Position numbers and translations under genes: made by a program
Notes under the pieces: model-generated
Told to the model about the DNA's origin: nothing
Database searches by the model: none
What the model saw: the letters and a program-made list of their open reading frames with translations, nothing else
Assembly: GCA_028688895.1 (NCBI GenBank)
Contig: JAQTXG010000002.1
Span: 62,001-126,000 of the forward strand
Direction of reading: 5' to 3'
Length of the DNA stretch: 64,000 bases
Origin: Candidatus Altimarinota bacterium
Lineage (GTDB): Bacteria; Patescibacteriota; Gracilibacteria; BD1-5; UBA6164
In this document: positions 845-50,820 of the stretch, piece by piece
How positions within the stretch are numbered: the first letter of the stretch is position 1
How the letters are laid out: the number at the start of each line of letters is the position of its first letter

Positions 845-2608
845 TTAATTATTATTAAATATCATATCATAAATTGGAATAACCATTTTATTATCAATAT
901 TCTTATGAGTAACTTCTTTTCATAGTAAAGTATCCATTTCAATATTTTTAATATTAGTATTGTTATTATTTTTTGATAAATCTAGTTCAGCTCAAAAATC
1001 TACATAATAATTTGTAGCCTTAGTGACATTCTTTTCTACATTATCTCTCATTAATGGTGATGCAATTTCTAATGTTATTAAATGATTAACATTTATATTT
1101 TCATCATTTAAGTAATTTGATAATAATACAGAATTATCTCATCAAAGACTATGTCAAACTATTATTATTTTATTATATTTATCTTTATTTTCTTTTATAT
1201 AATTTAGTGCTGGTAGTACTCCAGTGTCTTCATTAAAATCACCATAATATAGTTTAGTATCATATCATTTATTTCATTCAAACATGGATATTAAATCTGA
1301 TATTCAGTTGTCTACATAATGTCATTTAGGAACTTCTCATTTAGGAGCATATTTTTTAGGATTTCAAAATATATCCATTCATCATCATGCATATTCATGC
1401 TGCCATCCTGTAAATCAAATTATTAATGTTTTTCCTAATCCCCTCAAATCCTTATACATAACCCCATTATTCCCCACATAAGCATACAAATTAACATCAT
1501 CCTTTATATCAATCGGGTCTCTACTGATAAATCTTGCTAATTCTGGATTGTAGTATCTTGCTCTGTTGTAGTATAGTCATAATTCAGAATCATATTCTCT
1601 TCATGTGTATAGTCTAGTATTATCAAAACTATTATCTCATGATATTACTTTTGCTTTACCGAATACATCATAATCATACTCTACTATAGTATCTCAATTA
1701 TTATTTGTAAGTCAAACTATACTTCATAAATGATCTTTATGATAGTAGTATCTTTGTGAATTTTCTTCTAAAGATACTAGTTCATCTGTTCAGATTCAGT
1801 TTATATAGTCTCTTGTTTTAGTAGTATTTGTTGTAGTATCTGTTGTTGTTTCTTGTAGGATATTTTCATTAGATTACACATAGTTTATAACTTTTTCTGA
1901 TGTAGTTTTTTGAAATCTTCTATTTAATACATCATAGCTAAATTCTACTATTGTTTCATCTACTAAGTTTGTTGCTTTTACTAGTCTATTTTTGTAATCA
2001 TAGTAATATTTATACTTGTTATCTTGTTTTAGGTTTCAGTTGTTATCATATAAATAATCTATGTTTTCATTTGTCGTTACTAAGCTTCATGTGTATGTGA
2101 TTGTTGTAGTTGTTGTTTCTCATGTTCATGTTGTTGTACCACTTCATGTTTCAGTTGTTCAAGAACCTGTTTCTGTTGTACCACTTCCACTTTCTGTAGT
2201 TCTACTTCATGATTCAGTTGTTCAAGAACTTGTTTCAGTTGTTCCACTTGATGTTGTTGTTTCTATTATTTCTTGTAATTGGTAGCTTAGTATACTTCCA
2301 CTTAGTGTTGTATATTGGTTTAAGTTATTTGTTGCATAGTCATAGTTTGCTCAGCTTCATGTTGATTGATTGTAGCTATTTATTCTATTTCATAGATTAT
2401 CATAATCGAAACTTTCTAGTAGTGTTGTTGTGTTTGTATCTGTTATTTGTTTGATTCTGTAAATATCATCATATGAATATGTTTTATGGTTATCATTTGT
2501 GATATTTCATACTGCATCATATGTGTAATTATATGTTTTTAATCAATTGTTTAGGCTAGATGTTCTCATTAATTCATCATAGTAAACAATATATTGTGTA
2601 TTATATAT
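845..2608 (-). pseudogene. RHS/YD-repeat C-terminal fragment with GHSLGG hydrolase tip
   Basis: The open frame carries YD-repeat sequence, then the RHS core signature (YHKDHLGSIVGLT, then LGLYYNRARYYNPELARFISRDPI-like, split over 1480-1760). After the core it switches to a unique C-terminal domain of about 165 residues holding V-G-H-S-L-G-G at 1139-1159, the nucleophile elbow of alpha/beta hydrolases and lipases. Both glycines after Leu and the one before His are UGA. The gene is damaged: an in-frame TAA lies at 1874-1876, and the frame closes upstream with no N-terminus or export signal, butting onto an unrelated membrane-protein gene. A Ser/Thr/Gly/Glu-rich repetitive linker lies at about 2060-2280. 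It is best read as a remnant or displaced RHS tip cassette; the domain downstream of the TAA is still intact as an open frame. Confidence 0.8.
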
Positions 2609-37737: not shown

Positions 37738-37768
37738 AAAAGAGGTGTTAATAACACCTCTTTTTTGT
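37738..37768 (+). terminator. Terminator of the small basic gene
   Basis: The stem agaggtgtta/taacacctct is followed by six T, 12 bases after the stop codon. Confidence 0.9.
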
Positions 37769-37846: not shown

Positions 37847-40456
37847 ATGAATATAGAAAAATTTACAATAAATGCTAGTAAGAGAATAGAAGAGGCTCAA
37901 AATCTGGCAAATAAACTAAAAAATAACTCAATAGTTCCTTTGCATTTACTATATAGTATTGTGACAAGTACGGATTCTATAGTAAAAGAAATATTATTAG
38001 AAATGTGAGTGGATTTACAAATACTTGCTTCAAATATTAAAAGAGAAGTAGAAAAAATTCCTACTATAAGTGGTAATTATCAATTGACATTGTCTCACGA
38101 ATTGAACAATGTGTTTATAGAAGCTGAAAAAATAGCTGATAGAAACAAGGACCAATATGTGACTGAAGAACATTTGATACTTGCTTTGATAGAATATAGT
38201 GACAATACTACAAAAGATTTATTAAAAAACGCATGAATAGAATATTCTAAGGTAAAAAATATTATGGACAATATGAGAAATGGAGAAAAAGTTACTGATA
38301 ATGACCCTGAAAGTAAGATGAATACTCTGAAAAAATACTGAATAGATTTGATAGAACTAGCTAAAAACTGAAAAATAGACCCCGTAATAGGTAGAGAAGA
38401 AGAAATCAGAAGAACTTTGCAAATATTGTCTAGGAGATCAAAAAATAATCCAGTTTTGGTTTGAGAACCATGAGTAGGTAAAACTGCAATAGTTGAATGA
38501 ATAGCACTAAAAATAGTAAAAAAAGAAGTACCTGAAAACTTGATAAATAAGAGAGTGATTACTCTGGATATGTGAGCATTATTAGCAGGTGCAAAATACA
38601 GATGAGAATTTGAAGAAAGACTTAAATGAGTGATAAAGGAAGTAGAAAAATCTGACTGACAAATCATACTTTTTATAGATGAAATACATACTATTGTGTG
38701 AGCTGGAGCAGCTGAATGACAGGGGGACGCTTGAAATCTACTGAAACCAAGTCTAGCTAGATGAGCTATGAAACTAATCGGAGCTACTACACTAAATGAA
38801 TATAGAAAATACATAGAAAAGGATTCAGCTCTAGAGAGAAGGTTTGCAAAAGTAATAGTAGACGAACCTAGTCAGGAAGAGACTTTGGCTATTTTAAGAG
38901 GTATAAAAGACAAATATGAGGCTCATCATGGACTTAAAATAACAGACAAAGCTATAGAGGCAGCTGTTACATTGTCGACAAAATTTATCCCAGATAGACA
39001 ATTACCTGACAAGGCTATAGACTTGACAGATGAAGCTCTTTCATCTGTTAAAATGACATCTATATCTAAACCTATGGAGGTAGAAATATTGGAGAAAAAT
39101 TTGAGGACTTTGGAGATAGAATTGGAAGCGAAGAAAGCTGAGAAAACAGAGAAAACTCTCTCTACAAATACATCTGCTTCTCAGGAGAAAGATGCTTCAG
39201 ATAAAATAGAAAAAATAGAAAAAAAGATAGCTAGTAAAAGAGAGCAATTAGCTAGTATAAATTCTGCATGGAAAAAAGAAAAGGAACTCATAGATGAACT
39301 AAAAAATATCAGAGAAGAAATAGATAAGCTCAAAATACAAGCTGATAATTTTGAAAGAGAATGAAATTTCTGAGAGGTAGCTAGAATCAGGTATGGAGAA
39401 ATACTTACAAAAGAGAAAAAAATAGAAGAAGTAAGTGAAAAATTGAACAAATTGCATGAAAATGGACAAAGTTTTCTAAGAGAAAAAGTGACTGAGGAAG
39501 ATATAGCAGAAATAATAGCAAAATGGACAGGTATACCAGCTACAAAATTACTAGAAACAGAAAAAGAAAAATTGTTGAAACTAGAAGATTATTTAAAAGC
39601 TAAGGTAGTATGACAAGACCAAGCAATTATAAGTGTCTCAAATGCTATAAGAAGAGCTAAAGCATGACTAAATGAAGAGTGAAAACCTCTATGAAGTTTC
39701 TTGTTTTTGGGACCTACAGGAGTCGGTAAAACAGAAACTGCAAAAGCATTAACAGAAGTAATGTTTAATGATAAAAATGCATTTATCAGAATAGATATGA
39801 GTGAATATATGGAAAAACATGCTGTGTCTAGATTGATTGGTTCTCCTCCTGGTTATGTTTGACATGAAGAAGGTGGACAATTGACAGAAGCAGTTAGAAG
39901 AAAACCTTACTCTGTGATATTGTTTGATGAAGTAGAAAAAGCACATCCAGATGTATTTAATACCCTACTACAAGTGCTAGATGATGGTAGATTGACAGAC
40001 TCTAAAGGTAGAACAGTTGATTTCAAAAATACAATAATCATAATGACTTCTAATCTAAGACCCCCCTCTAACTCCCCCCTTAGTAAGGGTGGAGAAGAAG
40101 ACTTCTCATATTTAAAAGAATTTTTTAGACCTGAATTTCTAAATAGAATAGATGATATAGTAAAATTTAATAGTTTAGATGAAAATGTAATTATATGAAT
40201 AATAGACATATTACTCGAAAATGTAGTAGTGCTATTAAACAATAAGTGAATAAAAGCAAGTTTTACTGATAATTTGAAGAAGTACATAGCAAAAACTGGT
40301 TATGATAATGAGTTCGGTGCTAGACCCTTGAAGAGAGCAATTACTAATGTAATTAGTAATAGTTTGTCTGTTAAATTGTTGAATGGAGAATTGGTTGCAT
40401 GAGATAGTGTGGTAATTGATGTGGATGATGGGGGTGAGTTGGTGGTGAGGAAATAA
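37847..40456 (+). CDS. clpB: Chaperone ClpB
   Basis: An 869-residue disaggregase. N-terminal repeat domain at residues ~1-140; first ATPase with Walker A G-E-P-G-V-G-K-T at 206-213 (both outer Gly are UGA); a coiled-coil middle domain at ~400-540 rich in Glu and Lys; second ATPase with Walker A G-P-T-G-V-G-K-T at 622-629, Walker [17 protein letters not shown], and arginine finger [11 protein letters not shown]. The long middle domain separates it from ClpA and ClpC. It resolves protein aggregates with DnaK. Residues ~738-752 derive from a palindromic repeat in a loop between sensor 1 and the arginine finger. Confidence 0.97.
40060..40095 (+). repeat. GC-rich palindromic repeat, family A, inside clpB
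   Basis: The plus strand reads acccccctctaactcccccc, then ttagtaagggtggag. It is translated in frame as [14 protein letters not shown] after IIMTSNL in the second ATPase domain. The flanking ClpB sequence is intact on both sides. Confidence 0.85.
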
Positions 40457-40466
40457 AATATAAAAA

Positions 40467-40505
40467 TAAAAAGTATAATAAATATTTATTATACTTTTTA
40501 TTTTT
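40467..40505. terminator. Bidirectional terminator
   Basis: A long A/T stem (aaaagtataataaa/tttattatactttt) lies between the convergent clpB and prepilin-like genes. Confidence 0.8.
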
Positions 40506-40519
40506 AGACATTATTTGAA

Positions 40520-43267
40520 TTAATTTTTTAGGCAACGAATAGAAAATGCATTACCTCTCGTATTACTATTAGATGGATTTATACTACTTGAATTAAAATA
40601 GATTCTATATCAATTTCAAGATGATACTGGAGAACTAGACCAAAAACTTGCTAAAATTGACTGACTTCAATAGTTTCAATTTGTATATGCTCTTGCTCAT
40701 GCATATGGTAATCTCAAAACTGAAGCAATTAATGAATTATATGTCATACCATTTGTACATGTAGTTCATAAAATATTATTACATGCATCTTGCCAATCTT
40801 TTAAACTTGGTACATGCCGACCATTAGGACAGGGTCATTGTCTTCATATTGGAGTAGTCCCGGCTCAATCAGTAGTAGTAGTATCACTTATACTTCATCA
40901 CCATTTCGCATCATTACGAGGTTCCCATCAATTACCATATCATGATATTCATGCTGTAAATCATGTATCATTTCTTCACCATTGGTAATAATCTCATGCC
41001 CGATTTGGTTTATTTGAACAATCAGTACTACTAATACAGTTAAAAGTACTAGTTCAATCCCGGATAGTAGTAGCTCATAGATTTTTGCATGCCCATATTT
41101 GTCAATTAGAAAGAGTTATATCATTTAGTCATCAACAATTACTTGCAATTTGACATGTTGTTCAGTTTGAACCATAACCTGAATTACAAGAAAAGTAGCA
41201 TGCTGATGAGGAATCAGCACTTTGCCATGCTTGATTTGGAATAGTTGGTGTTCAAGTTGTTAATGAAGCATTTGTTGGTTGTGTAGTATCACATCATATG
41301 TTTTGGATACAATTTCAAGAAATATTTGTAATATCTGTTGTTAAACTTGCTGGTCCATTTATTGTAGTATTACATGTATAACCAGCTCTGGTTGCTGTTA
41401 TAGTATTACATGTACTTCCATAATTTCTAGTAGTAGAAAAATTACCACTTGAATCAGCTGTTACGTTTGTTCCACATACATTTATTGTTGCTCAATTCGC
41501 TCATGCTCAGAAACTTCAACTTACTGTATATGTATTTATAGTACAAGAGCTTCCGTTCCAAGAATAATTTACATTACAATCAAAATCACAACTAGCTTGG
41601 CTTTCTCACCAACTTGTACTTGGTGTCCATATACTTCAATTCCATGTTTGTGTGTAAGTTGTTGCTGTAGTTGCTGTTGCAAAATTTGGTATAGTTCATC
41701 AACATGTTACACTTTGTGTTCATGCTTCACATATATTTCAATTTTGTACATAGTTTGAATTACAGCTTGTTACTGTACATGTTCACCAATTACTTCAATT
41801 CCATGTTTCTTCTCATGTACCATTTGTGATTACACAGCTTCTCGTATCTGATACAAATGTTGTTCATCAGTCTTCTGTATGGTATCATGTTTGATTTGTA
41901 TATTTACATACTCATGGACTTGTACTATATGTCCATGCTGATGTTCATTGTGTTCCGTTCAATTCTGCATTTGCTGGCATTGTTCATGTACATGTATCTA
42001 GTACACAAGATTCTCAGCTTACTATAAAATTGTTTTCACAATTTGTTGTTTCTGTTCAGTATGTAAGTGTTCCGTCGTTACAGCTTACTTCTATATCTTG
42101 TGTACCATTTGAAATTGTTTTTGTAACTAATTGATTGTTTATTCCATGATTTATTTGTGGGATTGTATATCAGCTTTGAGTTGTTGCTGTACAGTTGCTA
42201 TATGTTGTAGTTGTTCATCATCCTCCTCATGTTGTTGCTAAGTTTCATCACAATGTATTATTTACATAATTGTTTGAATAGTTTACTAATTCTGGGCTTG
42301 GATTATTTAAGTCTATATTTAGTGATACTATATTTTTTATTTCTCACTCATTTTGTACTATTGTTCCACTATAGGCTTGTTGTAATCATTGTAATAGTGT
42401 CAATCTCGCTGTATTGCTTGTAGTACTTGTTAATGGTGCACATGATCATGTATCACTATAGGCTACTAGTTTTGTTGTAGTAAATTCAAATCATCAGTCG
42501 TATTTAAATTTACTTGTTTTGAATGTGCTTGGGAGGTTTCTATATCATGTATATACTAGTTTTTGTTCTGTTACTATTTGTTCTAGGTCTGTTACGCTTG
42601 TATCGTTTGTGATTATTGTTGGTAGGCTCAGTACATTACATGTATTTCATGACAGACTTTTTGTCATTTGTCAGTTATAATTTCATGTAGTGTAGGCTAG
42701 TGCTTCTGTATCTCATGCTGAAACCCTTATCAATTCTACCCTTCAAGCTATAGACTGGTCATGTATCAATGGAGATAAGGCTACTGTAGCTTGTTCCCCG
42801 CCTTGATAAGGAGGGGTTAGGGGTGGTCTGAAGCTTATAATCTCTCATTCCATCATTCATCATAGTTCATATTCATTTCTACTTAATAGTGTAGAATATG
42901 TATATTCTTTATCTGTTAGTGGATCTATTGGTATTTTGTCTAATCTATCTACATTTGCAAATACTGTTTCTCAGAATGTTCATTGATTCCACACAGTTGC
43001 TCACGAATATGTGATATTTACTCATGATGTTGCTTGTGGGTATTTCCCTGCATCTAGTTCAAACAATTCTAGGCTTGTTTTCATACTACTTAAGTCACTA
43101 AGTCTAGTACTATCTCTAGCGCTTGTACTATATCATTGTAATGCCATAAAGGCTATTGTACCTAGGATTGCTAGGATTGTTATTACTACTATGAGTTCTA
43201 CGAGGGTGAAGGCTATTTTATCTTGTACTATTAATTTAAACTTAGAGTTTATTCTTTGTTTATTCAT
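40520..43267 (-). CDS. Prepilin-headed surface protein with FISUMP-like C-terminus
   Basis: 915 residues. The head is a type IV prepilin or pseudopilin: a polar leader, then AFTLVELIVVITILAIL with Phe at 20 and the key Glu at 24. Residues ~150-160 come from a palindromic repeat. The middle (~350-680) is rich in Cys, Thr, Ser and Gly with repeated C-x-n-G-Y/W-x-n-C units. The last ~220 residues (GLNDITLSNGQIWACKNLGA, then PCPNGRHVPSLKDW, then SFWSSSPVSSGNGYRIYF) resemble the Fibrobacter succinogenes major paralogous (FISUMP) domain. Probably an exported, pilus-associated adhesin; a prepilin peptidase is not in the window. Confidence 0.85.
42795..42827 (-). repeat. GC-rich palindromic repeat, family A, inside the prepilin-like gene
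   Basis: The minus strand reads ccacccctaacccctcctta, then tcaaggcgggga. It is translated in frame as RPPLTPPYQGGEQ, closely like the leuS copy ([12 protein letters not shown]). Confidence 0.85.
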
Positions 43268-43385: not shown

Positions 43386-43413
43386 TTGCAATATTTTTAA
43401 AAATATATATAAT
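43386..43413 (+). promoter_or_regulatory. Promoter of def
   Basis: -35 ttgcaa (43386-43391) and -10 tataat (43408-43413), 16-base spacer, 31 bases before the def ATG. Confidence 0.55.
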
Positions 43414-43443
43414 TTTTGTATATATTAAAATAACTAATAAAAG

Positions 43444-43929
43444 ATGTTTAAAATCGAAACATGAGTAAATAACCCTATTCTCAGAAAAATAGCGGATAAA
43501 GTGACTGATAAAGACTTCAATGAAGCTGTAAAACTGGGTAAAAAGATGATAAAGTATATAAAAGACCCTGAAAATGGTTGAGTTTGATTAGCTGCTCCTC
43601 AGATATGAGTTTCATGGAAACTTGTAGTGGTAAGCATGTTAAAAGATCGGGATGATGAAAATTTCAAAACTATTATGATGATAAATCCTGAAATACTTGA
43701 ATTTTGATGAGGAAAAGAAATAGAGGTAGAATGATGTCTATCGGTACCCTGAGTAAAGTGAAAAGTAGAAAGATACAATATGGTAAAACTAACTTATCTA
43801 GATGAAAAAAAGAAGCAAATAACACTTATATTGAAATGATTACAAGCTAGAATTATTCAACATGAGCTTGATCATATAAACGGTAAATTGTTTGTGGATT
43901 ATTTGAAAAATAAAGAACCATTTATGTAG
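43444..43929 (+). CDS. def: Peptide deformylase
   Basis: 161 residues; it removes the formyl group from new proteins. All three metal-site motifs are present: G-V-G-L-A-A-P-Q at 46-53, E-G-C-L-S at 96-100 and H-E-L-D-H at 140-144. Gly46, Gly48 and Gly97 are all encoded by UGA, which makes this gene direct evidence for UGA=Gly. Ends with TAG, followed by a terminator. Confidence 0.97.
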
Positions 43930-43947
43930 TAATAAGGTTCTTTTTTT
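43913..43947 (+). terminator. Terminator of def
   Basis: Stem aagaacc/ggttctt spans the stop codon region and is followed by seven T. Confidence 0.75.
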
Positions 43948-44004
43948 GTATTCTAAGTATATTTATGTTAAAATAAATATGATTTATTATTAATATAAAA
44001 AAAT

Positions 44005-46572
44005 GTGTTAGCAAATGCATTAAAATATAAAAAACCAAGTGAATCTTACAATACTAGTAGTAATACTGATTCATTGGTTTATGATATAAGTGAAAAAGTA
44101 AATAATAGTATAGGTATTTTGGCAGAAACCATTAAAAAATACCCTTTTTTGAGTATAGAAAGTAGTTGAGAATTAATAATAAATACTGAACATAAGTTAT
44201 TCAATAGTGATAAATTGATAGGAATGATTGATTTTATATTTGATTCAAAGTTATGATTTGATTGATTGAATTATGAAAATCTAGAAAATTTACTATATGA
44301 TGAAGAAAAATGAGAAAAAATAGTTATATCTAAATGAGTAAAGAAAACTTACAAAACTATTTTGGATAATTTTTATAAATGACTGTATGAAGAAAAAGAT
44401 TGAAAACTGTTTTTGATATTGGACAACTTTGATGAAACTAATAAAAGAAAATTGATAAATTTACTTTGAGAGGATAAATACAATGAAATGAATATGGGAG
44501 TAAATTTTGATGATTTATTTGCATATATATGGATAGAACTTTGAATCAGATTTTGATACAATTTTAAATACTTGAATTCTGTAGAATTTAGTTGAATAAA
44601 AAGAGAAGAATTAAATAAAAGTGAGGTATGTATTGCAAGTATAAGAAAACCTGTAAATGACCAAAATGATGAAATAAATTTGTGAGCAAATATTAAGTTT
44701 GTAAAACGTGAAAAACAAAGATTGAGTACAAATGATAAAAATAAGACAATTAATGAATATACCTATCCAAATGTAAAAAAATGAGATATAGTAGCTCAAT
44801 TAAAAATCTGAAAAAAATGACATAGCTGAGTAGATTTAAAGTGAAATATTATCTGATATGAAAAAGCTTTTGAAATAGATGAAAAAAGTTTCGTAAATGA
44901 ATGACAAAAATATTTAGAAAAAAAAGTAGATATAATTGATTGATATAAAATCATTAGTTATATAGCTAAAGAAGAATTGTACTTAAACTTTGTGAAAAAT
45001 AAAAGTAGTGTAGATATAGATTATTTTGCTAGGTGAAGAAATGTATGAATTAATGTATCACCAATATGAATAATAAACTCTAATGATATATGAATAGAAA
45101 CAGGTAGTATGGAAATAAAAAATGAAAATACCATGTTTTTACAAAAATGAAATATATCAGAGTGATATTATCTTAAATGAAGTGATATATATTTGAAAAA
45201 TTCTCAGGTAATGTCTGGTTCTAAAGTAATTGCGTCGTATGATATATATTTACACTGAGATACTAATATATGTAACTGAACATTACAAACACTGAAATGA
45301 TGAGTAATATCTAATAAAGAAACAAAAATACATACAAATAGTAAAATATTTGCTGTGAATTGAAAAGTAGTTATAAAATGAGATATAGAGCAGTCTACTA
45401 TAGTTGCGGATGAAATAATAATAGAATGAAATGTAAATACATGTACTTTGGTTGCCAAAAATATCACTCTGATATGAAATGTAAAAAAAAGTAAACTTAG
45501 ATGAGAAAAAATAAATGTAAATATAGATGATTGAGAAAATGAATTAGTAATTATTGTATTTTATGCTATTGATAAATTTAAAAGGTATTTAGATCAAATT
45601 AATAGTAATAAAGCAAAATTTAATATAAGATTAAAATCATTAATAAAAAATTTAAATGATAGAAGAGCTATAATAAAAAGTCTTAAAGAAAAATTATCCA
45701 TAACTAAAGATGTAAAAACAAAAGAAAATTTAACTTTCGAAATACATAAAAGTTTGAGAGAATTGGATAATATAAAAAATCAATGAGACCAAATAAATAA
45801 CAAAATGAATGAAGATAAAAATTATTCTGAAAGAATAAAGAGATTTATCAAATATTTCGAAGATAAAAAGGACTGAAATGTATTAAGAATTCTAAAATGA
45901 AATTCTAATAGTGATATATATATACATCCAACTTGAATAATTTTTGATGATGAGGAACATATATCATTGAATCCAAATGATATATCAAATAGAATGAAAA
46001 ATAAAATGGTATTTTTACAATCACTAATAGAGTTCAACTTCAAAAATGAGAAAAGATTAATAGTAAATGAAACTTGAACTAGTGTTCCTTTGACTCATAT
46101 AGAAAGTTTGGAAATGTTAAAGAATCATATGGAAACAATGAATAGTAACATAAATACAGAAATAATGTCTCAGAGATTGGATGAAAGAAGACATTTAATT
46201 ATAAAACATGATACTTGAGCATTGTTTGATACAAGTAAATTAAATAATGCTTATGAGATAAAAAAACATAATCTGATAAATGTAAATATAGATTGAATGA
46301 CTGATTGTTATCTAAATGATTTAAGTCTGAAATGAGCAAGTTTTTTGGTAAATAATAATAATGCTATACATAAAGAAAATACAAGTATAGATGTAAAATT
46401 TGAACTTAAAACAGAACAATGAACACATGAAATAAAATCTAGTTTTTGGATAACTCGTATAGAAGACAAAGAGAATCATAAAAAAATATCTGGATTTTTC
46501 TTGTGATCTACATCTGAGAATTTGATAGCTAAGTATTTTAACTATATAGATAGTAAGCAACAAAAAAAGTAG
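44005..46572 (+). CDS. FapA/DUF342-like protein with PilZ-like C-terminus
   Basis: 855 residues starting at GTG (no usable ATG nearby). The middle (~250-500) is a beta-helix-like run of short strands with many Gly (nearly all UGA), Asn and Ser, matching DUF342/FapA polymer-like proteins (GRNGVNVSPIGIINSND, GSDIYLKNSQVMSGSKV, GDIEQSTIVADEIIIEG). A long coiled coil follows at ~530-620. The last ~90 residues (LNDLSLKGASFLVNNNN, then KISGFFLGSTSENLI) resemble a PilZ domain, though the classic RxxxR motif is not seen. FapA-type proteins are linked to surface or flagellar assembly; role here unknown. Confidence 0.7.
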
Positions 46573-46639
46573 AGAAATAAAATAATATATACTTTTTATA
46601 TACCTTATATTTACAATTAAAAAATTATTGTTACAATAA

Positions 46640-46666
46640 AAAAACTTCCATATGGAAGCTTTTTCC
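46640..46666 (+). terminator. Terminator after the FapA-like gene
   Basis: The palindrome cttccatatggaag is flanked by an A-run and followed by cttttt, 70 bases after the stop codon. Confidence 0.65.
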
Positions 46667-46782
46667 ATAGGAAGTAATATTTTATTTCCTAACATGCTTG
46701 TTATGAGAATATATCTATCATTCAAATAAAAGAATGGATATATTTTTGCTTTTAGTATTTTAAATAATACAAAAAAGAAAGC

Positions 46783-46818
46783 GAAAAAAAAGAGAGGTTA
46801 GCCCCCTCTCTTTTTTTT
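46783..46818. terminator. Second terminator-like hairpin
   Basis: agagagg/cctctct stem with A-run before and eight T after. No gene is seen between it and the previous terminator. Confidence 0.7.
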
Positions 46819-46869
46819 ATTTCCCAGCTTGTATGAGATATATATATTATAATAAATTAATTTAAAATT

Positions 46870-46895
46870 GCAAAAATTTTATATAAAATTTTTGC
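46870..46895. repeat. 26-bp perfect palindrome
   Basis: gcaaaaattttat/ataaaatttttgc is a perfect inverted repeat in the gap upstream of the subtilase gene, just before the 60-bp tandem repeats. Confidence 0.75.
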
Positions 46896-46902
46896 CGAAA
46901 AA

Positions 46903-47033
46903 TTATTATTTTAAATAAAATAGCAAATATTACATCTTTTTGCCTATTTACATTTGTAATATTTATTATTTTAAATAAAATAGCAAATATTACATCTTTT
47001 TGCCTATTTACATTTGTAATATTTATTATTTTA
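46903..47033. repeat. 60-bp tandem repeat, 2.2 identical copies
   Basis: Two identical 60-base units (46903-46962, 46963-47022) and an 11-base start of a third. Each unit contains the inverted pair aaatattaca ... tgtaatattt (10 bp) around a 20-base pyrimidine-rich loop. The array ends 19 bases before the subtilase ATG. It lies in the 480-base gene-free gap 46573-47052. Confidence 0.9.
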
Positions 47034-47052
47034 TTCCAATAATAATTTTTTT

Positions 47053-48990
47053 ATGAAAAAAATATTGCTGTGATTGATATTGATAATTTGATTTTTTTAT
47101 TCAATAAATATAAGTGCTTTTAATGAAGATGAATTATTAAAAAAAATGAATGAAAATCTATATAATCAAAATGAAAAGAGCTATTGTAAAGTATACAATG
47201 AAACAATTACATTAAATGATGATTATACATATTATAGAAATGAACAAAAAAACAACTTTTCAAGTGATAAATTCTGGGATTACTCTAATAAAATTAATGA
47301 AATATTTTATAAAATTAAGAATAACCAAGAATGGATGGAATCTTATAAAAATATTTACAAAATTTGAAATAATATAGATTGCTACAAGGCAACTTACTGA
47401 ACTCCAAACAAAAATAACTATATATATTTAACAGATAGTTATCCAGAAGAAGGTTATATGTACAGTTATAGTTCAATAGCAATTGAATGAAAATGATTTG
47501 AAAATAATATTAATAAAAATGTATATATTTATTTTGTTGTATGAAGTGCAGAATTTCAAGTAAATAATTATAAAAAATTTTCTAATGAAAAAATATATAT
47601 AAATCTACCTGATGCAATAATAGATTCAATAAGTAATTGAGTAGTAGTTTGAGTACCGTATTATGAGGTAAAATACTGTGTTGAAAATGAATGTGCTTAT
47701 ACACCTATTAAAAGTTGATGATTAACTAATGATAATTTATCATATCAACAATATTATCTATATAAACATAATATATTGTCTGCAAGAAACACTATAACTA
47801 ATCCAAAAAAAGTAAAAATAGCAGTGATTGATGATGGTGTATCTCTAAATCATCCTGATTTAACAAATAAAATATGGGTAAATAAAAATGAAATACCTTG
47901 AAATGGAATAGATGATGATAAAAATTGATATGTAGATGATTATAATAGTTGGAACTTTGTTTATAATTGAAATAATACTAAACCATTATGAACTCATTGA
48001 ACTAAAGTAGCATGAATAATTTGAGCTCAAATTAATAATAATGAATGAATATGATGAATAGTAGATAATGTAGAATTGATGTCAGTGTGAGTATGTAATA
48101 AGACAGGATGTGAAGTTGAAAAAATTATAGAATGAATATATTATGCAGTTGATAATTGAGCAAATATAATAAATCTAAGTTTATGATGAAATCAATTTAA
48201 TTGATATGATAAGAGTTATGATGAAGCTTTAAAATATGCTTATGATAATAACATAATAGTAGTCATAGCTTGAGGTAACTGAGATGTATTAAGTAATAAT
48301 GGTGTAAATACAACTATAAATAAAATATCGCCTGTATGTAATAATTGAGACAATTATAAAAATATTATATGAGTATGAGCATTTACATCTAAATGGAGTA
48401 ATTATTGAGATTGTATAGATTTTTATACAGTATGAGAAAAAATAATGTCGACTTCTTTTTGAGAAAATAGTAACTCATTATCATGAGAAAATTATACTCT
48501 AGCTAATTGAACTTCTTTCTCTGCGCCAATATTAACTTGAATAATAGGTTTATGATATGAAAAATACTGAATAATTGATAGAAATACTGTATATGATGCA
48601 TTAACTGAAAGTGATAAAGATTGAATTATTGATGCTTTAGAATATATTAATGTATTATGAAAAAAGTTATGAAAAAGTAATAATACAAAAAAGGAAAATG
48701 TAAAAATAAATACTAGAAAAATTATTGTTATAGATGATAAAGTAAAAAATGAGAATTTACAAAAAGAAAAAGCAGATAAAATTTTTGTAAAAATTATAAA
48801 TATATTGAATAAATATCCAAAAAATAAAAAAGATGAAGCATTAAACTCAGTTATAACAAAATTAAATATATTAAAAACTAATGAAAGCTCAGATAAAATA
48901 ATAATGTACAGACATTTAATAAATTTAATAAATAAAGAATTATGAAAATGTGATGAAGTTCAAGTATTATTGTGACTATGTAGCGAATAA
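47053..48990 (+). CDS. Secreted subtilase (S8 serine protease)
   Basis: 645 residues. Signal peptide at residues 1-20. An N-terminal ~240-residue region with no known motif is followed by the peptidase S8 domain: Asp260 in VIDDGV, His315 in GTHGTKVAG and Ser488 in NGTSFSAP. The Gly residues of these motifs are UGA. Asn of the oxyanion hole is likely in AGGNGD (~417). A C-terminal tail of ~110 Lys/Asn-rich residues follows an EF-hand-like D-K-D-G-I-I-D-A-L-E. Probably an exported protease; substrate unknown. Confidence 0.92.
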
Positions 48991-49007
48991 TTATTAAAAT
49001 AATCTTT

Positions 49008-49511
49008 ATGAATAAATATATAGACTCTGCAATAAAAGTACTTTCGAAGAGTAATATTCCACTACATTCAAAGACAATTACAGAATTAGCTTTATCTAAA
49101 TGATACTTAAAAAGTGATTGAAAAACACCAGATGAATCTATGTGATCAATTATACGTGATGATGTAAATAAGAAATGAAAAAATTCCTATTTCATAAAAA
49201 CTGAACCATGATATTTTAAATTAAACAAAAATATAAATATTAATACAGAGGAAAAAAGTTTAGCAAAAAATAAAGAATATACTACTGATGAACTTGAATT
49301 AATATTTTCATTATGTCCTACTAAAGATAATGTAAAAAAATTAGCAAAAATACTTAATAGGAGTGAAAGAGCTATTGAACAACAATATCAATGGGCAATG
49401 CTAAGTGATAAAGCTATAGATATAAAAAATAAAGAAAATGATACAAATTGGAACAAAAATATGAAATGTAGAGAAATATCTAAAAAATTATGATGGTTAA
49501 GAACATATTAA
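49008..49511 (+). CDS. HARE-HTH domain protein
   Basis: 167 residues. Residues ~5-80 match the HARE-HTH winged-helix domain: AIKVLSKSNIPLHSKTITELALSKG, then GKTPDESMGSIIRDDV, then FIKTEPGYFKLN. The domain occurs in RNA polymerase delta and in DNA-modification or restriction proteins. The C-terminal half has a Myb/SANT-like look (YTTDELELIFSLCPTKDNVK, then LNRSERAIEQQY). A DNA-binding regulator is plausible. It lies 17 bases after the subtilase gene, likely co-transcribed. Confidence 0.75.
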
Positions 49512-49514
49512 AAA

Positions 49515-49548
49515 AACAAAAAAAGTAGAGAAAATCTCTACTTTTTTA
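49515..49548. terminator. Bidirectional terminator
   Basis: Stem aaagtagag/ctctacttt with A and T flanks between convergent HARE-HTH and secY genes. Confidence 0.85.
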
Positions 49549-50820
49549 TTATCTAAATTTACCGTAATCAAACATTTTCATTTCAGCATCAACTTTTCTA
49601 ACTACATCTAGTATAACAGAAACTATAATGATTAATCAAGCAGCTGAGATAATAAAATCAACTGATTGTCACATAATTTTTGATACAATATATGGTAGAA
49701 CTGCGATAAGTGCCAAGAATCAACCTCCGAATAAGTTTAAGTGTTCAGATACTTTAGTTAAGTATTCTGATGTCTCAGAACCTGGTCTAATACCTGGAAT
49801 ATATCCTCATCTTTTTTGTATGCTTTCTGCAACATTATCTGTATTGAAAGTAATAGATACATAAAAGAATGAAAATCCAAGAACTAATAGGAAGTATATC
49901 AATATAAATATCCATGAAGGATTAGACATATTGAAATATTCTAATAAAAATTTACCAATATTTGAAGCTGTTTCACTTGAATTAGGTCAAGTAAGTATTT
50001 GTCCAATAATAGCTGGAAAAGTAACTAATGATACAGCAAATATGATTGGAATCATTCATGCTTGGTTGATTCTGATTGGAAAATATGATTTTTCCTCTCT
50101 ACCAGTTCTAGTGTAAATAATAGGTATTCTTCTATTACCTTCAGTAAATTTAATAATTATGTAAATAATTAATAAACTAGCTATAAGTAAACCTACAAAT
50201 AATGGATAATCTCATGTAGATATATGTCACATAATCGTTCCAGGTACACTAGATAGCACTCATGCAGTAATTATTATACTTATACCATTTCAAATACCGT
50301 TTTCAGTCATTACTTCACCTAACCACATCAAAAATATAGTTCCGGCTGTAATAATAGTCATGGCAGTTAATACAACTTTTATATCTGATAAATCAATTAT
50401 TGTACCAGATGCAAGAGTATTAAGTAACACTATCATTCAATAAGATTGAACAAATGCTAATGGTAATGTTAGCCATCTAGTATATTTAGTCATTCTCTTT
50501 TGTCATTGTTCTCATTCTTTTTGAAGATCACCTATTTTTGGAACTATTACTCAAAGTAATTGAATAATAATCATAGCATTAATATATGGTGAAAGTCACA
50601 TCAGAATAATAGAAAAATTCGATAATCAACCTCACATTAAAGCACTAAAAAAAGATAAACCTTTATTTGCTTCCATAATCGCATCAAGTTTCGTTGTATC
50701 AACTCAATACACAGGTATTACAGATAAAAACTTATAAACCAAAACCAAAAGCAATGTAGCTATGATTTTCTTTTTAATAGCTTTATTCTCGAATACAGAC
50801 TTTATACTATTTAGTATCAT
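49549..50820 (-). CDS. secY: Protein translocase subunit SecY
   Basis: 423 residues with about ten membrane helices; it forms the protein-export channel. Typical sequences are seen: FLSVIPVYGVD near residue 35, GGGLSNFSIILMGLSPYINAMII near 65, MWLGEVMTENGIGNGISIIITAG near 175, and the cytoplasmic loop RRIPIIYTR near 230. Last gene of the ribosomal-protein block but separated from uL15 by a terminator and 262 bases, so it probably has its own promoter. Confidence 0.97.

What the first reader, a model, noticed from the sequence alone, without database searches (positions are those of the whole stretch)
46870..47033. Tandem hairpins upstream of the subtilase
A 26-base palindrome and two identical 60-base units, each with a 10-bp inverted repeat, end 19 bases before the ATG. 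They may be a regulatory RNA switch, a binding array or a phase-variable copy-number site.
Basis: seen in the sequence. Interest (0 to 1): 0.55.

Follow-up and report, generated by a model that had tools for sequence, protein, structure and literature searches.

The report
Duplicated repeat beside hidden RNA gene
The repeats in front of this protease gene look like a recent short duplication of its control region, while the palindrome beside them overlaps the promoter of a previously unnoticed RNA gene on the other strand, one of a small RNA family that carries the same variable sequence in two places.

Summary
In detail: a perfect 26-bp palindrome (46870-46895) and a 60-bp unit repeated 2.2 times without mismatch (46903-47033), 19 bases before the subtilase ATG, in a Gracilibacteria genome that reads TGA as glycine. 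Each unit has 18-base arms (16 paired) around a 20-base loop. BLAST finds the unit nowhere else in its genome, and TTATTATTTTA stands at every unit junction, as expected of a recent tandem duplication. A duplicated promoter/operator segment is my best, modestly supported reading; a structured leader RNA is not excluded.

The palindrome is a separate thing. It overlaps the -35 box of a minus-strand non-coding RNA gene (about 46838-46640), kept at 95% in congener G002, which lacks subtilase and units, and at 74% in G014. I found 12 full copies of this RNA family in 5 of 48 family genomes; no Rfam family reached its threshold in the stretches scanned. Each RNA has two loops sharing a segment that varies between RNAs: for the seven type A RNAs only the true pairing among 5040 reaches the observed score. 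Bridge RNA was tested and failed (no IS110 recombinase domain in carriers); pairing with the tandem units is no better than chance. The repeats are ordinary; the RNA family is the lead.

The parts
46903..47033 (+). 60-bp unit repeated 2.2 times (46903-46962, 46963-47022, 47023-47033), TTATTATTTTA at each unit start; each full unit with an 18-base-arm inverted repeat
46870..46895 (.). perfect 26-bp palindrome overlapping the -35 box of the minus-strand RNA gene
   Evidence: 23 of 26 bases kept in G002
46846..46873 (-). promoter-like TTGCAA-16-TATAAT of the RNA gene
   Evidence: similar boxes in G002 and G014
46640..46838 (-). non-coding RNA gene (type B copy): loop 1 at 46837-46827, hairpin 1 at 46818-46784, hairpins at 46782-46748 and 46743-46709, loop 2 from 46707, end hairpin at 46659-46645. 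Ends inferred
46940..46969 (+). promoter-like TTGCCT-18-TATTAT, unit 1 (weak)
47000..47029 (+). promoter-like TTGCCT-18-TATTAT, unit 2 (weak)
47053..48990 (+). subtilase (PF00082), open with TGA read as glycine
49008..49511 (+). HARE-HTH protein gene; only its tail remains in G002

Best explanation
The stretch is the control region between two divergent genes. To the left a minus-strand non-coding RNA gene reads from a TTGCAA-16-TATAAT promoter; the palindrome overlaps its -35 box and is best read as an A/T-rich upstream element or operator of that promoter. To the right is the subtilase. The 60-bp segment before it, with a promoter-like pair inside an inverted repeat, was recently doubled, probably by slippage or recombination between 11-bp direct repeats, giving two promoter/operator copies. 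Shown: anatomy, identity of the units, junction repeats, the RNA gene in relatives, no second place of the unit in the genome. Inferred: that the units work as promoter/operator DNA, that the palindrome acts on the RNA promoter, and the duplication mechanism.
For: Identical units with TTATTATTTTA at every junction; unit found only here in its genome by BLAST, and only these two copies match the dyad exactly in 5 genomes of the genus; promoter-like pair in each unit; palindrome plus promoter plus RNA gene kept in G002 without subtilase and units; promoter boxes and RNA kept in G014 at 74%.
Against: Promoter-like matches are frequent in this AT-rich DNA (13 found, 6.2 expected). The region folds well as RNA (z -6.4). 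The palindrome is not seen in the G014 or G011 copies, so symmetry is not needed for that promoter. High identity of the block in G002 need not mean selection: the adjoining 91 nt with the HARE-HTH tail are 96.7% identical too, against 81.7% (def), 66.6% (FapA-like) and 82.7% (secY side). Dyads within 3 mismatches are about twice as frequent as the reversed control (44 against 22 in 5 genomes). No expression data.
Confidence: 0.45

Rival explanations
1. The units are transcribed in the subtilase leader and act as RNA hairpins that set mRNA stability or translation.
For: Fold z -6.4 for the region and a hairpin of -8.3 kcal/mol, z -3.6, for one unit; position just before the ATG.
Against: Any inverted repeat folds; the same unit cut at 46903-46962 gives z -1.9. 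No Rfam family at threshold; no tandem repeat in 7 of 7 homologous leaders examined.
Confidence: 0.2
2. Neutral duplication without function.
For: Found in one genome only; no second place; absent from 7 homologous leaders.
Against: Sits directly before a gene and keeps a dyad; weak evidence.
Confidence: 0.25
3. The neighbouring RNA acts on the subtilase leader by pairing with the units.
For: Adjacency only.
Against: Duplex energies are no better than for shuffled leaders (156, 202 and 160 of 300 shuffles as good or better for loop 1, loop 2 and full RNA) or other AT-rich stretches (113, 172, 200 of 248).
Confidence: 0.03
4. Unit number is an assembly artefact.
For: 57-contig draft and identical copies.
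Against: The array is only 131 bp, short enough for ordinary reads to span (general knowledge, not tested).
Confidence: 0.05

Closest known systems
Tandem duplication of a promoter/operator segment between short direct repeats (recalled, general bacterial genetics)
   Same: Identical adjacent copies, short repeat at the junctions, just before a gene
   Different: Promoter activity is not shown here; the unit also carries a long dyad
IS110 bridge RNA (PMC11208160, passages read)
   Same: One non-coding RNA with two loops, each with a segment that varies between copies
   Different: In bridge RNA the loops serve target and donor and sit in an element with a recombinase; here the two loops match each other and no IS110 domain was found in carriers
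Sibling small RNAs with a common seed, such as OmrA/OmrB (recalled)
   Same: Own promoter, terminator-like hairpins, a common segment in two parts
   Different: Both parts lie in one apparent transcription unit, and the segment differs between loci of one genome

Membership tests
IS110 bridge RNA system | IS110 recombinase (DEDD domain, PF01548) encoded with the RNA | tested here: not met
   2 of 48 family genomes match (G007, G055), none a carrier of the RNA. PF02371 was not searched.
IS110 bridge RNA system | two loops pairing with target and donor DNA | tested here: inconclusive
   Two loops with a shared variable segment, but no target found near the genes
Known Rfam RNA family | score above the gathering threshold | tested here: not met
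   Window 46500-47100: 19 sub-threshold matches, none at gathering score; 12 loci: none. L090, L092, L093 not scanned.
sigma-70 promoter duplication | -35/-10 pair in each unit | tested here: inconclusive
   TTGCCT-18-TATTAT, 9 of 12, in a background with many matches
sigma-70 promoter duplication | mapped transcription start after each copy | not testable with these tools
   no RNA data held
Phase-variable copy-number site | unit number differs between strains or reads | not testable with these tools
   one genome per species, no reads

The most novel reading that the evidence does not exclude
The RNA gene beside the repeats is one locus of an undescribed Gracilibacteria RNA class in which a single transcript displays the same variable guide twice, each locus with its own guide: a two-handed guide RNA, with an unidentified protein partner, acting on two identical sites or on a paired target. 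The palindrome is part of its promoter region.
Probability: 0.2. Interest if true: 0.8.

Novelty: new variant of a known kind. Interest (0 to 1): 0.42.

Why it matters
The tandem units alone matter little. The RNA family beside them could matter: two places of one RNA that change together between loci imply a partner they both recognise, which can be looked for directly. My two literature searches on Gracilibacteria/Absconditabacteria with noncoding or small RNA listed 4 and 1 papers, none of them on such RNAs by title and abstract start; the library lacks most subscription journals.

Tried and rejected
(1) Bridge RNA with an IS110/Piv-type recombinase: no PF01548 in carriers. (2) RNA pairing with the tandem units: chance level. 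(3) TTTACATTTGTAATAT of the unit as a recurrent operator: 19 places in 5 genomes at up to 1 mismatch, two of them the units, against 8 for the reversed control; of the 17 others, 13 lie inside an open frame. The core matches 11 times in the window, 4 of them in the units, against 5.9 expected, reached by 8 of 100 shuffles. (4) Loop segments matching DNA within about 1-2 kb of their own gene: sum reached by 153 of 20000 permutations, but the listed matches are short AT-rich strings and can come from the rest of the RNA, which was masked only at the loops; I do not count it. (5) The shared segments as target-site duplications: set aside, because promoter and CATA motif outside and inside them are conserved between loci. 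(6) Other copies: unit in viral contigs 0 exact, RNA hairpin in viral contigs 0. (7) A second loop-2 copy or target of the window RNA's GCTTGTTATGAG in the window: only itself without mismatch, 8 matches against 5.5 expected. (8) Papers: candidate phyla radiation with structured RNA and covariance model gave 0; two searches were read as listings only; of PMC11208160 I saw passages.

Weak points: R1, built from five type A copies, scores type B copies at only 27.0-41.9 bits (window 38.0), while reverse-strand hits on the palindromic hairpin reach 34.7; A-B kinship rests mainly on shared layout. Covariation is modest: 4 of 42 pairs with changes on both sides; 'further pair types' (9) is no more than in shuffles (9.3); hairpin 1 is misaligned in two of seven rows. 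One search picked loop 2 wrongly for several RNAs and lacked one; one search replaces it. The four short single-loop elements were left out of the test. In one search the own loop scores highest in 11 of 12 rows and 9 of 12 columns. One search ran with stricter filters, so copy numbers are lower bounds.

Full report
Setting. The window lies in a genome of 1.8 Mb in 57 contigs. Long genes are open only when TGA is read as glycine. Two MAGs that carry the same RNA hairpin are named Candidatus Gracilibacteria. Gene order: def-like (named by eye), FapA-like (PF20250), the intergenic stretch, subtilase (PF00082, E 4e-46), HARE-HTH protein, then a minus-strand gene that I read as secY by eye.

Observation. 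Palindrome and units are as described, with two additions: arms of 18 bases with 16 paired, and an 11-base third partial copy. It is the strongest tandem array of the window and the only exact one of its kind. Other palindromes of comparable size exist in the window.

The units. BLAST of the 60-base unit in its own genome returns only the two adjacent copies. With 150 bases of the region in 48 family genomes at E up to 10, all 48 gave short AT-rich matches; the best elsewhere was 49 bases at 86%, E 3e-8, in G004, and the list was cut. That place lies beside a gene and shares TTTACATTTGTAATAT, which did not prove to be a recurrent operator. The dyad at up to 3 mismatches gives 10 places in G000 and 44 in 5 genomes against 5 and 22 for the reversed control, only the two here being exact. 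I looked at 7 of the 16 homologous places: no tandem repeat in any, an inverted repeat in one. Each unit has TTGCCT-18-TATTAT; the last ends 23 bases before the ATG. I prefer doubled promoter/operator DNA, at modest confidence.

The palindrome. In G002 the stretch 46586-46914 is 91.6% identical, against 81.7% for the def stretch, 66.6% for the FapA-like gene and 82.7% for the secY side; the 91-nt HARE-HTH tail is 96.7% identical, so recent shared history of this block is as possible as selection. G002 has def, this block, a tail of the HARE-HTH gene (32 residues), FapA-like, secY side; subtilase and units are missing, and the FapA-like gene lies on the other side of the block. The minus strand shows TTGCAA-16-TATAAT, its -35 box overlapping the palindrome end, then hairpins and terminator-like stems. 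In G014 and G011 the boxes are similar but I see no palindrome.

The RNA family. The hairpin GAGAGG..CCTCTC as a pattern gave 19 places in 10 of 48 family genomes and 0 for the reversed control. By eye 11 of 19 have the full layout, 4 a short form with loop 1 only (G000:C30, G002:C19:18712, G004:C1, G004:C2) and 4 (G005, G010, G012, G021) none. A covariance model of the middle hairpins of five type A copies, searched in 77 genomes of the order, matched 9 places in 4 genomes at E up to 0.001 and added a copy in G011. Total 12: 7 type A, 4 type B (one each in G000, G002, G011, G014), one in G059. Seven type A cores: 4 of 42 pairs with changes on both sides; covariation score 0.102 against 0.076 in shuffles, reached by 1 of 500; 'further pair types' not raised. 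Three single folds have z -6.0, -6.0 and -7.2. Around 10 of the loci the translated neighbours differ and, by eye, include no transposase. Rfam: none at gathering score in the window stretch or 12 loci.

Matched loops. Each RNA has a CATA motif followed by a variable stretch, once before hairpin 1 and once after the third hairpin (in G059 the motif is less clear). The stretch is nearly the same in both places of one RNA and differs between RNAs. Permuting loop 2 among RNAs: 7 type A, only the true pairing of 5040 reaches the sum; 4 type B, 1 of 24; all 12, 0 of 50000 random permutations. Orthologs such as G000 and G002 type B are not independent, and types differ overall, so the type A test is the fair one. 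Bridge RNA predicts an IS110 recombinase, absent from carriers. No target was identified. Two joined small RNAs with a common seed is the conservative reading, a dual-guide RNA the bold one.

Verdict. The repeats are real but ordinary; the palindrome goes with a neighbouring RNA gene, and that RNA family is the point worth following.

Noticed in passing
window 46640-46838 (-); L045, L046, L047, L050, L071, L072, L075, L076, L080, L092, L093: Family of about 200-250-nt RNA genes with matched variable loops (12 full copies in 5 of 48 family genomes).
   Followed up: partly
L090 about 1455-1550 (-), L059 (-), L048 (+), L078 (-): Short elements with loop 1 and the GAGAGG hairpin only; three of them lie at the end of a similar (glycosyltransferase-like by eye) gene in G000, G002 and G004.
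   Followed up: partly
window 43400-50000 against L023: In G002 the FapA-like gene lies on the other side of the RNA block, the subtilase is missing and only the tail of the HARE-HTH gene remains.
   Followed up: partly
window 40461-40506: Perfect 46-bp palindrome just after the end of a ClpB-like gene (named by eye), AT-rich.
   Followed up: no
window 40074-40092, and by eye in the protein at 40520-43267 and in L046: GC-rich near-palindrome read in frame as [13 protein letters not shown] in the ClpB-like gene; similar PPL..GGE stretches in two other proteins.
   Followed up: no
L071 about 1799-1900: Long head-to-tail array of an 11-bp repeat (GCTACAACAAG type) downstream of a type A RNA gene.
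   Followed up: no
window 37738-37764 and 49519-49547: Two more perfect palindromes of 13-bp arms; a weak hit of the RNA model (18 bits, E 0.61) covers the first.
   Followed up: no
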